Made by a program: the position numbers and the translations under genes
Shown here: one piece after another, positions 47,427-49,752 of the stretch
Layout of the letters: the number at the start of each line of letters is the position of its first letter
How positions within the stretch are numbered: position 1 is the first letter of the stretch
The notes under the pieces: model-generated
What the model saw: only the letters and a program-made list of their open reading frames with translations
Told to the model about the DNA's origin: nothing
Database searches by the model: none
Assembly (NCBI RefSeq): GCF_030811115.1
Contig: NZ_JAUSQK010000001.1
Coordinates: 806,001-870,000 of the forward strand
Direction of reading: 5' to 3'
DNA length: 64,000 nucleotides
Source of the DNA: Olsenella profusa DSM 13989
Lineage (GTDB): Bacteria > Actinomycetota > Coriobacteriia > Coriobacteriales > Atopobiaceae

Positions 47427-48395
47427 ATGGCAGGAAAGAGGAACTACTACGACGTCCTTGGCGTGAAGCGTGACGCCACAGACGACCAGATAAAAAAGGC
47501 GTTTCGCAAGCTCGCGGCCAGGTATCATCCGGATGCGGGCGGCGACGAGCAGAAGTTCAAGGAGGTCAGCGAGGCGTACACTACGCTCAGTGACCCCCAG
47601 AAGCGTAAGGAATACGATCAGCTGCTGATGTTCGGCGGCATTCCCGGATCCGACTTCGGCGGTTCGGGCGGCCGCAATCGCGGCGGCTATACCTACACCA
47701 CCAACGTCGGCGGCGACTGGGGCGACATCTTCGACAGTATCCGCAACGGCGATGGTGCCTTCTCGGGCTTCGACTTCTCCACGATCTTTGGCGGCCAGGC
47801 TGCGGGAGCACGCACCAGCCGTCCCGTGAAGGGTTCCGACCTGACGATGACCATCGAGGTCAGCGCCGACGAGGCCTTCAAGGGCACCCAGCGCAGGGTG
47901 ACCTTCACCATCCCCTCCACGGGGGAGCGACAGTCGCTCAACGTCAAGGTTCCGGCGGGAGCCGTCGATGGCGGCAAGCTGCGCTACCGTGGTCGTGGCG
48001 AGTATGGCGCCAACGGTGGGGCCCGTGGCGATCTCGTGGTCACCACGCACGTGCTTGAGCACCCCCTCTTCAAGCGTGATGGCGCGGATGTGCGCATGGA
48101 GCTGCCCATAAGCATGTACGAGGCGGCGCTGGGCGCGGGCATACAGATTCCCACGCCCGCAGGAAGGGAGCTGCTGCTCAAGGTTCCCGCCGGTACCCAG
48201 GACGGCAAGACGTTCCGCTTCCGTGGCATGGGCGCGCCCGACGTCAAGCACTCGGGAGGCACCGGAGCGCTCTACGTGACGGTGCGCGTCAAGGTTCCCA
48301 CGCGGCTTTCCGCAAGGGAGCGTGACGAGCTGCAGGCACTCCGCGATGAGGACGAGCGTGACTATAGAAGGGGCGTGAATCGCTATGGCGCGTAG
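47427..48395 (+). CDS. dnaJ: DnaJ/CbpA-type co-chaperone (no zinc finger)
   Basis: A 322-residue J protein. The J domain (about 6-70) has the invariant HPD in AARYHPDAGG; a Gly/Phe-rich linker (about 72-130) and two C-terminal beta domains (RPVKGSDLTMTIEVSADEAF, VPAGTQDGKTFRFRGMG) follow. The CxxCxGxG zinc repeats of classical DnaJ are absent, so it is of the CbpA type. Its end overlaps hspR by 11 bases, coupling the two. Confidence 0.93.
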   Translation: MAGKRNYYDVLGVKRDATDDQIKKAFRKLAARYHPDAGGDEQKFKEVSEAYTTLSDPQKRKEYDQLLMFGGIPGSDFGGSGGRNRGGYTYTTNVGGDWGDIFDSIRNGDGAFSGFDFSTIFGGQAAGARTSRPVKGSDLTMTIEVSADEAFKGTQRRVTFTIPSTGERQSLNVKVPAGAVDGGKLRYRGRGEYGANGGARGDLVVTTHVLEHPLFKRDGADVRMELPISMYEAALGAGIQIPTPAGRELLLKVPAGTQDGKTFRFRGMGAPDVKHSGGTGALYVTVRVKVPTRLSARERDELQALRDEDERDYRRGVNRYGA

Positions 48396-48828
48396 CGATG
48401 AGGACGGGGCCGGCATCCCCGACCGTGCCTCAAAGGACAAGCCGCTGTACATGATCAGCGTAGCGGCTGAGCTCACGGGCATGCATCCTCAGACGCTGCG
48501 TGTCTATGAGCAGAAGGGGCTCGTGAACCCCGGCCGTTCGCGGGGCAACACGCGCCTGTACTCGCGGGGCGACATCGAGCGGCTCAATCTCATCAGCAAG
48601 CTCACGGACGAGGGCATCAACCTGGCGGGGGTCGTGCGCATCCTCGACATGCGCGAGCGTGCGGAGGCGCGCGACCAGGAGATAGACCGGCTGCGCTCCC
48701 GCGTGCGCAAGCTTGAGGACGAGATGCACGAGCTGCGCATACGGGAGCGGATCACGGCGCTGGCCCGCTACGATGGCGCAAGCCCCGAGCAGGTCATGCG
48801 AGGGCTGCTCAACAGCGCCGACGAGTAG
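48385..48828 (+). CDS. hspR: Heat-shock repressor HspR (MerR family)
   Basis: A 147-residue MerR-type protein with a winged helix at about 22-90 (MISVAAELTGMHPQTLRVYE, QKGLVNPGRSRGNTRLYS) and a coiled-coil tail. Its place as the last gene of the dnaK operon is diagnostic for HspR, which represses that operon, normally with DnaK as co-repressor. The HAIR-like dyad at 44378 is its probable target. Confidence 0.93.
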   Translation: MARSDEDGAGIPDRASKDKPLYMISVAAELTGMHPQTLRVYEQKGLVNPGRSRGNTRLYSRGDIERLNLISKLTDEGINLAGVVRILDMRERAEARDQEIDRLRSRVRKLEDEMHELRIRERITALARYDGASPEQVMRGLLNSADE

Positions 48829-48851
48829 CCCTCCCTGGGGGAGTGGAGGGG

Positions 48852-49095
48852 GAGTCGTTCGCACTTTCGCGGCGGCCCCCTTCGAGTCGTATGCAGTCGC
48901 GCGGAGGCTCCCCGCGGGTCGTATGCGATTTCTGGGGCCAAAACGGTCCTCGGGGGCGTCCCTCCCGACGGGGGCAGGCCTTCTGCCTGCGGCTCGCGGA
49001 ACGCCGGGTCGTCCGCGATTGCGAACGACCCGGGAGGCCGGTCCGAGGGATTGCATACGACTCGGGAGGGCACGCCACGGGATCGCGAACGACTC
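48852..49095. repeat. Symmetric palindromic array with 32-bp period
   Basis: The 11-base motif GRGTCGTWYGC starts at 48852, 48884 and 48916. Its complement ends at 49031, 49063 and 49095. Every spacing within an arm is exactly 32, and all three pairs are centred at 48973.5. A further copy GGGTCGTCCGC (49006-49016) pairs tightly with the complement at 49021-49031. The intervening sequences are not identical. The array fills the gap between hspR and the nuclease fragment and has no coding potential that I trust. Confidence 0.85.
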
Positions 49096-49121
49096 GGGGA
49101 GGCGGGGCCGGAGGGGCGGGG

Positions 49122-49535
49122 CTACGTGGGCGCGTAGGTTCCGTCCCGGTAGTCGATAGCGTAGCCCTTGGCGGCGTTGTAGACCTCGAGGCGCTCGTCG
49201 AGGCGGCCGTCCGACGAGAGCACGTCCACGAGCACCGAGCGCGGGATGGGCTCGGCGCCCTCGTAGGCCGGCGTGGCGACGTACTGCACGGTCACGTCGG
49301 GGTAGGCCGCGAGCCAGCCCCTGATGGCGGCCTCGAAGACGTCCATGCCGCCCTGGCCGTCGCTCGCCCCCACGTTGAGCATGCGCGTCCCCGTCACCAG
49401 GTTCTCCCTGCGCTCCTCGCCGCCAAGCGACTTGGCCAGCAGGTGGCAGCGGTTCCAGAACCAGTCGCGGGAGACCCTGCCGTCGGGCAGCACGATGGTC
49501 GCCCTCGAGTTCCTGGGCCAGCCCGCCGGACGCCA
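49122..49535 (-). pseudogene. Truncated copy of secreted DNA/RNA endonuclease gene
   Basis: A 3' fragment of the gene at 54827. It encodes the nuclease core (SRDWFWNRCHLLAKSLGG, ENLVTGTRMLNVGASD, GGMDVFEAAIRGWLAAYP) and its own slightly different C-terminus (IDYRDGTYAPT). The first ~130 residues, including the membrane anchor, are missing; homology ends at 49526 where an unrelated IS-like sequence begins. A short product from the GTG at 49493 is possible but would lack export signals. Bases 49150-49526 match 54855-55231 with one difference that I can see (49158). Confidence 0.85.
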
Positions 49536-49672
49536 CGTGCCCGACGGGCCTGCGCCGGACCCTCGGGGTCAGCCTCGCGTTAGGATACTGGTACATGGGG
49601 GCTCCTCTCGCCGCAAGTCCAGTCAACTCACAGTTTGGTGGAGCCCTCCTCCTTTGTCACACGCGGGGTGTC
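49524..49672 (-). pseudogene. Possible IS481-type transposase 5' fragment
   Basis: From ATG 49596 leftwards the peptide reads MYQYPNARLTPRVRRRPVGH and then VASGG before running into the nuclease fragment. A start with N-A-R-L-T-P-x-x-R-R is typical of IS481-family transposases. A TTGACACCCCGCG sequence about 75 bases further upstream could be near an IS end. Only about 25 codons remain, so the family call is tentative. The rest of the gap up to 49752 shows nothing else. Confidence 0.35.
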
Positions 49673-49752
49673 AACAACCTGTTGGCGCGCAATAGCTAGG
49701 TGCTGCGCGCATCCGCGTATGCTCACTGATCGCCGCCCTGCGCGACCGCGCT

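What the first reader, a model, noticed from the sequence alone, without database searches (positions are those of the whole stretch)
48852..49095. Mirror-symmetric array of an 11-base motif with exact 32-bp spacing
Three direct copies and three inverted copies of GRGTCGTWYGC are each spaced exactly 32 bp and centred on one point (48973.5), while the sequences between them differ. The 32-bp step is about three helical turns, so all motifs face one side of the helix. This looks like a cooperative protein-binding array or an unusual BIME-type element rather than a simple palindrome.
Basis: seen in the sequence. Interest (0 to 1): 0.62.

Follow-up and report, generated by a model that had tools for sequence, protein, structure and literature searches.

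The report
Mirrored protein-site arrays around shared core
The repeat is one of some two dozen copies of a small intergenic DNA element in Olsenella profusa that looks like a protein docking platform: evenly spaced short motifs peculiar to this species, mirrored around a central 17-base site that related bacteria also carry between other mirrored motifs.

Summary
GTCGTWYGC pairs 32 bp apart: 4 in the window, 0 in 100 shuffles; 31 in the genome, 0 reversed. The array is one of at least 23 copies in Olsenella profusa, mostly 168-170 bp: two direct motifs, core, two inverted motifs. The window copy has one extra 32-bp unit per arm. All 18 copies examined lie by a gene's stop codon, none between divergent genes.

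In 20 of 20 elements its best match sits 72/73 bp from one end, or at +10, +31, +32. In other genera the same core stands between other mirrored motifs: 35 of 68 fetched core sites, 1 of 134 control positions. In one genus such units are dispersed with sharp ends and no target duplication.

Opposed motifs do not covary, which favours duplex recognition by protein over hairpins. REP membership fails: no RAYT found, no compensatory changes.

Best reading: a MITE- or BIME-like nucleoprotein element with shared core and lineage-specific arms. Binding proteins are unidentified; host function is inferred. New variant of a known kind.

The parts
48852..49095 (.). whole element (244 bp; enlarged copy of the 168-170 bp standard element)
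48852..48862 (+). left arm motif 1, GAGTCGTTCGC
48884..48894 (+). left arm motif 2, GAGTCGTATGC, +32 bp
48916..48926 (+). left arm motif 3, GGGTCGTATGC, +32 bp (extra unit relative to the standard element)
48975..48991 (-). degenerate core CGCAGGCAGAAGGCCTG (13 of 17 of YGCAGGTASATGANTTG), 105 bp from the right end = 73 + 32
49006..49016 (+). extra forward half-site GGGTCGTCCGC forming a 26-bp dyad with 49021-49031
49021..49031 (-). right arm motif 3, GGGTCGTTCGC
49053..49063 (-). right arm motif 2, GAGTCGTATGC
49085..49095 (-). right arm motif 1, GAGTCGTTCGC
48385..48828 (+). neighbour: MerR-type regulator after dnaK-grpE-dnaJ-like ORFs (HspR by position, my reading); its stop is 23 bp before the element
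49122..49493 (-). neighbour: short ORF with Endonuclea_NS_2 domain, convergent; its stop is 26 bp after the element

Best explanation
The array is one copy of a dispersed, non-coding intergenic element that works as a docking platform on double-stranded DNA. SHOWN by sequence: at least 23 copies in the O. profusa genome; standard plan = two direct motifs, an asymmetric 17-bp core at fixed register, two inverted motifs; the arm motif is peculiar to the species within its family, while the core stands between other mirrored motifs in nine fetched genomes of six other genera; most length changes come in helical turns; ends are sharp. INFERRED: a lineage-specific DNA-binding protein occupies the arm motifs on one face of the helix; a conserved protein occupies the core; together they close a symmetric wrapped or looped complex. 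INFERRED: the units spread as small non-autonomous mobile elements (MITE/BIME-like) and, in O. profusa, old copies were kept at gene 3' ends, mostly between convergent genes, where two-sided protein blocks are useful or harmless, perhaps separating transcription units or absorbing supercoils.
For: Genome-wide recurrence: 31 exact pairs, 0 reversed; 40 and 0 with up to 3 mismatches of a longer pattern. Sequence-only model: 21 matches in the own genome (19 distinct elements), 20 in F0195, 0 in each of the three other congeners, one weak match (E 0.002-0.005) in each of six other genomes. Core best hit at 72/73 bp from one end in 17 of 20 elements, at 83, 104 and 105 in the other three. Core pattern in 88 of 140 family genomes, 199 matches against 19 reversed by my hand sum of the table. 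Inverted repeats around the core at P <= 0.01: 35 of 68 core sites fetched from other species, against 1 of 134 positions 400 bp away. Two arm families in one genome by eye (G006, G099). Steps 21-22, 32, 42 bp. Variant letters of opposed motifs match no more than by shuffling: outer 5 of 17 (6.8 expected), inner 8 of 15 (7.0 expected); RNAalifold covariation term +1. Spacers 33% alike (27% shuffled), left-arm motif columns 84%. Boundary conservation rises from 0.50 to 1.00 in O. profusa and from 0.35-0.38 to 0.88-0.96 in genus g33. In g33, copies homologous over about 141 bp lie at 10 different places of G104 alone; at one locus five related genomes have only 47-81 bp of other DNA in place of 209-221 bp.
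Against: No binding protein identified for arms or core. No target-site duplication of 5 bp or more at exact ends, 0 of 18 and 0 of 26. No insertion polymorphism between the two O. profusa strains at the 21 loci compared. Within-species constraint on motifs is not established: 1 of 781 motif, 17 of 2433 spacer, 84 of 10987 flank sites differ, motif against spacer P = 0.093, and one further motif difference (504 kb) falls outside the motif count because G000's copy is degenerate there. Core matches without arms are common: 33 of 68 fetched sites fail the arm test, and in the set L142-L171, mostly one site per genome, only 3 of 28 pass. In relatives the 3'-end preference weakens: 7 divergent, 12 convergent, 28 codirectional of 47 resolved loci. 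G006 type-a arms step 39, 44 and 93-104 bp; element 260 is 165 bp, off a whole turn.
Confidence: 0.55

Rival explanations
1. Purely selfish MITE: arms are binding sites of a transposase or recombinase supplied in trans, the core is its strand-transfer or accessory-protein site, and copies have no host function; intergenic location reflects only where insertions are tolerated.
For: Discrete units with sharp ends in genus g33, 10 places in one genome; loci with other or no element in related species; elements 1227 and 1232 in O. profusa share a 22-bp step and similar left spacers by eye.
Against: No target-site duplication; no autonomous element seen: the transposase between two arms at 1883 kb is an IS1595 copy with its own inverted repeats, sitting in an array; spacers of O. 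profusa copies have largely diverged while left-arm motif columns stay 84% alike, which neutral decay would not readily give.
Confidence: 0.3
2. Bidirectional transcription terminator acting as RNA: arms pair to form hairpins in both transcripts.
For: All 18 O. profusa copies examined lie by a stop codon, 17 of them within 39 bp or overlapping it, 10 between convergent genes; some inner motifs form dyads (1723, 1602, 1260 kb and window 49006-49031).
Against: Opposed motifs do not covary; covariation term +1; no intrinsic-terminator pattern in window 48700-49250; no Rfam match at E up to 1 in 48300-49700.
Confidence: 0.07
3. Classical REP/BIME or REPIN family moved by a RAYT.
For: Intergenic, inverted pairs, species-specific repeats; two congeners without the O. 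profusa elements carry Y1_Tnp genes, one of which also has the abundant AGTGTACACAAAT repeat.
Against: No Y1_Tnp match in O. profusa G000 or G039 by the same search; the 11-bp unit is not itself palindromic; no compensatory changes.
Confidence: 0.05
4. Site-specific recombination (attP-like) sites: arms are integrase arm sites, the core is the crossover site.
For: Direct arms, central asymmetric core and inverted arms; in two g18 genomes two cores lie head to head with about 11 bp between (L159, L188).
Against: More than 20 standing copies with no cargo; orthologous copies in place in both strains at 21 loci; no recombinase evident by eye among the neighbour translations.
Confidence: 0.06

Closest known systems
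BIME-1 of E. coli (REP-IHF-REP; as described in PMC2817692, passages seen)
   Same: Two oppositely oriented repeat units around an inter-repeat sequence that binds another protein; intergenic; repeats differ between species.
   Different: Here the units are 11-14 bp, tandemly stepped by helical turns, not stem-loops; the centre is a 17-mer found between different arms in several genera; no RAYT found in the species.
Correia elements / CREE of Neisseria (MITEs; PMC2229807, passages seen)
   Same: 100-200 bp non-coding units with inverted ends and, in the 155-bp form, an internal IHF site; that form is almost only intergenic.
   Different: Correia has a 24-bp TIR, target duplication and TA termini (its Table 1); here tandem short arms, no target duplication found, different arms around one core.
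REPIN / GTAG-REP families (PMC3733652 and PMC2817692 passages seen; PMC3116915 and PMC8266576 search listing only)
   Same: Species-specific dispersed intergenic repeats in inverted pairs.
   Different: REPs are 20-40 bp palindromes, many with a GTAG or CGTC tag and some with a partner RAYT; the O. profusa motif meets neither. The congener G040 repeat AGTGTACACAAAT looks nearer to this class.
Arm-and-core att sites of tyrosine integrases (recalled)
   Same: Arm-type sites on both sides of a core, the whole assembled by protein.
   Different: No integrase or cargo seen; more than 20 copies per genome.

Membership tests
REP/BIME/REPIN | unit is an imperfect palindrome (stem-loop) kept by compensatory changes | tested here: not met
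   11-bp motif is not palindromic; opposed copies do not covary; covariation term +1; only some inner sites are dyads
REP/BIME/REPIN | Y1 (RAYT) transposase in the genome | tested here: not met
   PF01797: 0 in G000, G039 and G038, 2 each in G040 and G041
REP/BIME/REPIN | GTAG or CGTC tag at the unit end | tested here: not met
   arm logo GAGTCGTWYGCAAT has none; the core holds GGTAG, which may be chance
MITE | short non-coding unit under 200 bp, dispersed, with sharp ends | tested here: met
   168-170 bp in 13 of 20 O. profusa elements, about 141 bp in g33; ends sharp; window copy 244 bp and element 2358 201 bp exceed 200
MITE | terminal inverted repeats | tested here: met
   outer arm motifs are inverted and terminal, but only 11-14 bp and not matched in variant letters
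MITE | target-site duplication | tested here: not met
   0 of 18 and 0 of 26 at 5 bp or more with exact ends; with shifts of up to 3 bp, 2 of 18 in O. profusa share a 5-mer (0.29 expected; one is the window copy, whose flanks are G-rich)
MITE | autonomous parent element with the same ends | tested here: inconclusive
   none seen in the O. profusa loci read; the 1883-kb candidate is an IS1595 inside an array; relatives not searched
Correia element (CREE) | internal IHF-type site | tested here: inconclusive
   a core exists but it is not the IHF consensus as I recall it; its binder is unknown
intrinsic terminator | GC stem-loop followed by T run | tested here: not met
   0 found in window 48700-49250; the other copies were not scanned

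The most novel reading that the evidence does not exclude
A Coriobacteriales system of modular chromosomal nucleoprotein sites: one conserved factor recognises a shared core, while fast-evolving partner proteins, different in each lineage and sometimes two in one cell, recognise helically phased arms; the assembled complexes act as two-sided boundaries at gene 3' ends. Core constant, address changed: a bacterial counterpart of binding-site turnover driven by a changing DNA-binding protein.
Probability: 0.25. Interest if true: 0.82.

Novelty: new variant of a known kind. Interest (0 to 1): 0.62.

Why it matters
Small intergenic repeats are usually classed by their repeat unit, so families with different units look unrelated. 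Here a shared 17-bp core links units whose flanking motifs have nothing in common, between species and within one genome. That gives a handle on two open questions: what assembles on such elements, and why their recognition motifs change so quickly. It also gives a concrete 17-bp bait and 11-bp baits for pulling out the proteins.

Tried and rejected
Hairpin/RNA reading: tested by variant matching and RNAalifold, not supported; Rfam gave nothing. RAYT reading: tested, none found in the species. Autonomous transposon at 1883 kb: the transposase there (two open pieces in different frames) is IS1595-family with its own near-perfect inverted repeats and an apparent 8-bp duplication (my reading of the printed flanks), sitting inside an array, so the arms are not its ends. 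Replication-strand bias of core orientation: GC skew too weak to decide. Phage or plasmid source: no exact match in viral contigs for the O. profusa arm pair; no similar DNA in plasmids or phages for one g33 element. In print: full-text search for GCAGGTAGATG (26 papers, 10 listed, none on bacterial repeats) and searches on Olsenella+repeat+intergenic, Collinsella+REP, Coriobacteri+MITE, BIME, Correia and REPIN terms; passages of PMC8040213 and PMC12306157 showed nothing on it. Absence from print is not established. Promoter reading of TATAAT before the core in G006: no -35 seen by eye, dropped. Pyrimidine-rich outer spacers (0.67 against 0.57 outside): not pursued. F0195 copy C44:39917, first taken as a possible strain difference, is also in G000 at about 2605.5 kb. 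Dropped before the 55-locus core logo: L142, L143, L149, L152-L155, L165, L167, L170, L177 (coding or no arms by eye), L145 (duplicate of L172), L161 and L162 (O. profusa). Slip mended: the right end of element 1227 was set 3 bp short; it is 158 bp. One search repeats the variant, end, duplication and strain counts with the right end; one search's core positions do not depend on it. TTATCCGAAGTG in G036, first read as mirrored arms, fails the test and is not used.

Full report
WHAT IS THERE. The window lies in a 2.62-Mb single-contig genome, bases 806001-870000. The only other genome of 140 in the family with the paired motif, G039, is marked 'same species', and its contig positions agree with named contigs of Olsenella profusa F0195; so the organism is O. 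profusa by inference. At 48852-49095 three GRGTCGTWYGC motifs and three inverted ones are spaced exactly 32 bp about one centre. In 100 shuffles of the window no 32-bp pair occurs; the window has 4. An extra forward half-site at 49006 forms a dyad with 49021-49031. In a named collection of 84,980 species the stricter pair gave 17 stretches: 15 O. profusa F0195 and one each in a Conexibacter MAG and a Streptomyces.

GENOME-WIDE. The exact pair GTCGTWYGC-N23-GTCGTWYGC occurs 31 times in the genome and 0 times reversed; with up to 3 mismatches of a longer pattern, 40 and 0. A sequence-only model from 13 standard elements finds 21 matches here, 19 distinct elements (the window copy is hit twice, element 1253 on both strands), 20 matches in F0195, and none in the three other congeners. 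Elements at 260, 1883 and 2358 kb, and one at about 2605.5 kb that is in both strains, make at least 23. Of the 20 elements measured, 13 are 168-170 bp outer to outer (in 788 the left end is set by position, its outer motif being lost); the rest are 158, 159, 160, 165, 180, 201 and 244 (the window). The step is 32 bp, or 22 bp in one arm of 1227, 1232, 2460 and 1883.

THE CORE. Between the arms lies an asymmetric site, YGCAGGTASATGANTTG. The best 17-mer in the inner part of each of 20 elements (11-16 of 17 letters) starts 73 bp (12) or 72 bp (5) from one end; the other three are at 83, 104 and 105. Those offsets, +10, +31 and +32, are one and three helical turns. The window copy is the +32 case: its right arm carries one extra unit, and its degenerate core (13 of 17) is where that predicts, P about 6e-5 for that slot and 0.007 anywhere in the inner part. 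The extended arm logo from 32 of 35 arms is GAGTCGT(TC/AT/AC)GCAATYT.

DUPLEX, NOT HAIRPIN. If arms paired, the variants TC/AT/AC at positions 8-9 should match across the centre. They do not: outer 5 of 17 (6.8 expected), inner 8 of 15 (7.0 expected), from 21 elements, counting pairs with intact GTCGT and GC (an earlier count with one misplaced end gave 5 of 15 and 7 of 13). RNAalifold gives a covariation term of +1. Spacers of 12 standard copies are 33% alike (27% shuffled) while left-arm motif columns are 84% alike. Strain comparison points the same way but is weak: motif 1 of 781, spacer 17 of 2433, flank 84 of 10987 sites differ over 20 of 22 queries; P = 0.093 against spacer, 0.046 against spacer and flank together, and at 504 kb a motif intact in F0195 is degenerate in G000 and so escapes the motif count. 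One copy (2134 kb) lacks a single run of 32 bp in F0195.

WHERE IT SITS. For 18 arrays with simple gene calls of my own, 10 lie between convergent genes, 8 between codirectional genes, 0 between divergent genes; 17 of 18 are within 39 bp of a stop codon (two overlap it) and the last within 63. In relatives this weakens: 12 convergent, 28 codirectional, 7 divergent of 47 resolved, with 4 unresolved and 1 inside an ORF.

THE WIDER CLASS. Six other genomes gave one weak model hit each; five of these contain the core, and several show other inverted repeats by eye. The core pattern, up to one mismatch, is in 88 of 140 family genomes and 24 of 35 genera; my hand sum is 199 matches against 19 reversed. 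Many such matches are bare: of 68 core sites fetched from other species, 35 have a significant inverted repeat between the 120 bp on either side (P <= 0.01, shuffles), against 1 of 134 positions 400 bp away; 32 of 40 in L173-L211, but only 3 of 28 in L142-L171. The 35 come from nine genomes of six genera (G006, G034, G053, G057, G060, G086, G089, G099, G104). Arm motifs read there by eye include CACCTGCAAGTGACATGTCACTTGCAGGTG and GAACTTCAGGTTAGTAGAGT (both G006), AGGGTATGTACAC and GTTGTGCGCAC (both G099), AGGGTACGTACAC (G089), CTACTGTACGAAC (G060). Steps measured: 42 bp (G006 type b, 4 of 4), 21-22 bp (g33 33 of 33; G089 10 of 11), against 32 bp in O. profusa; but G006 type a gives 39, 44 and 93-104. 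Across the class, with a longer pattern and two mismatches (hand counts): second family f3, 51 of 61 genomes, 136 matches against 14 reversed, one genome with 31; family f2, 36 against 11; 83 genomes of other orders, 8 against 10. Arms were not looked at there. Family names are not given by the tool; calling the own family Atopobiaceae is my reading.

MOBILE ORIGIN. In genus g33, 29 rows from four genomes align with one element, most end to end over about 141 bp; some are orthologues of each other, but G104 alone has 10 places. Conservation stops at the first base of the outer arm on both sides, in g33 and in O. profusa. At one locus four genomes align across the element; five (G088, G090, G097, G101, G112) keep both flanks with 47-81 bp of other DNA between, some with a different inverted repeat by eye; G083 has 114 bp where the query has 286; G087 has a longer stretch with a gene; in the remaining ones only one side matched. 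No target duplication of 5 bp or more with exact ends: 0 of 18 and 0 of 26; allowing shifts of up to 3 bp, 2 of 18 in O. profusa share a 5-mer against 0.29 expected. No insertion difference between the two O. profusa strains at 21 loci. No Y1 transposase found in O. profusa, while two congeners that lack these elements have it.

MECHANISM. I think the arms are occupied on one helical face by a lineage-specific protein and the core by a conserved one, closing a symmetric complex of about 170 bp. That rests on anatomy. The step to function (boundary between transcription units, supercoil sink, or transposition complex only) is inference. The mobile reading and the host-use reading are compatible: units may spread as MITEs and later be kept.

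KNOWN KINDS. The nearest in working are BIME-1 (REP-IHF-REP) and Correia elements with an internal IHF site (passages of PMC2817692 and PMC2229807 seen). It fails the REP tests made here and one MITE test (target duplication). I file it as a new variant of small dispersed intergenic elements.

Noticed in passing
G040, e.g. L096 and L101-L120: A congener carries 156 copies of AGTGTACACAAAT (0 reversed, 0 in G000, G038, G041), often in inverted pairs 47 bp apart with alike spacers; a REPIN-like family in a genome with Y1_Tnp.
   Followed up: partly
L097:10210-10900 (G041): Dense array of CGTGGGAATCGCCTC / CGTGGGAATGACCTCC-type units downstream of recO, where O. profusa has one of its arrays.
   Followed up: no
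L095:5493-6080 (G040): Array of 13 GAGTGGCAGTG units in both orientations with recurring spacings.
   Followed up: no
G000:C1:1883426-1884840: An IS1595-family element sits inside one array, with its own inverted repeats and an apparent 8-bp duplication; its transposase lies in two frames.
   Followed up: partly
G000:C1:2134827-2135006 against L064: The F0195 copy lacks one run of exactly 32 bp, the size of one repeat unit.
   Followed up: partly
arm motif positions 8-9, 21 O. profusa arrays: The dinucleotide is TC (36), AT (28), AC (6) or CC (1), never TT, so the two positions are not independent.
   Followed up: no
L159, L188 (G035, G034): In this genus the core occurs as a head-to-head pair with about 11 bp between.
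   Followed up: no
window 49122-49493: The Endonuclea_NS_2 ORF matches only profile positions 50-126 of 132 and may be truncated at its start.
   Followed up: no
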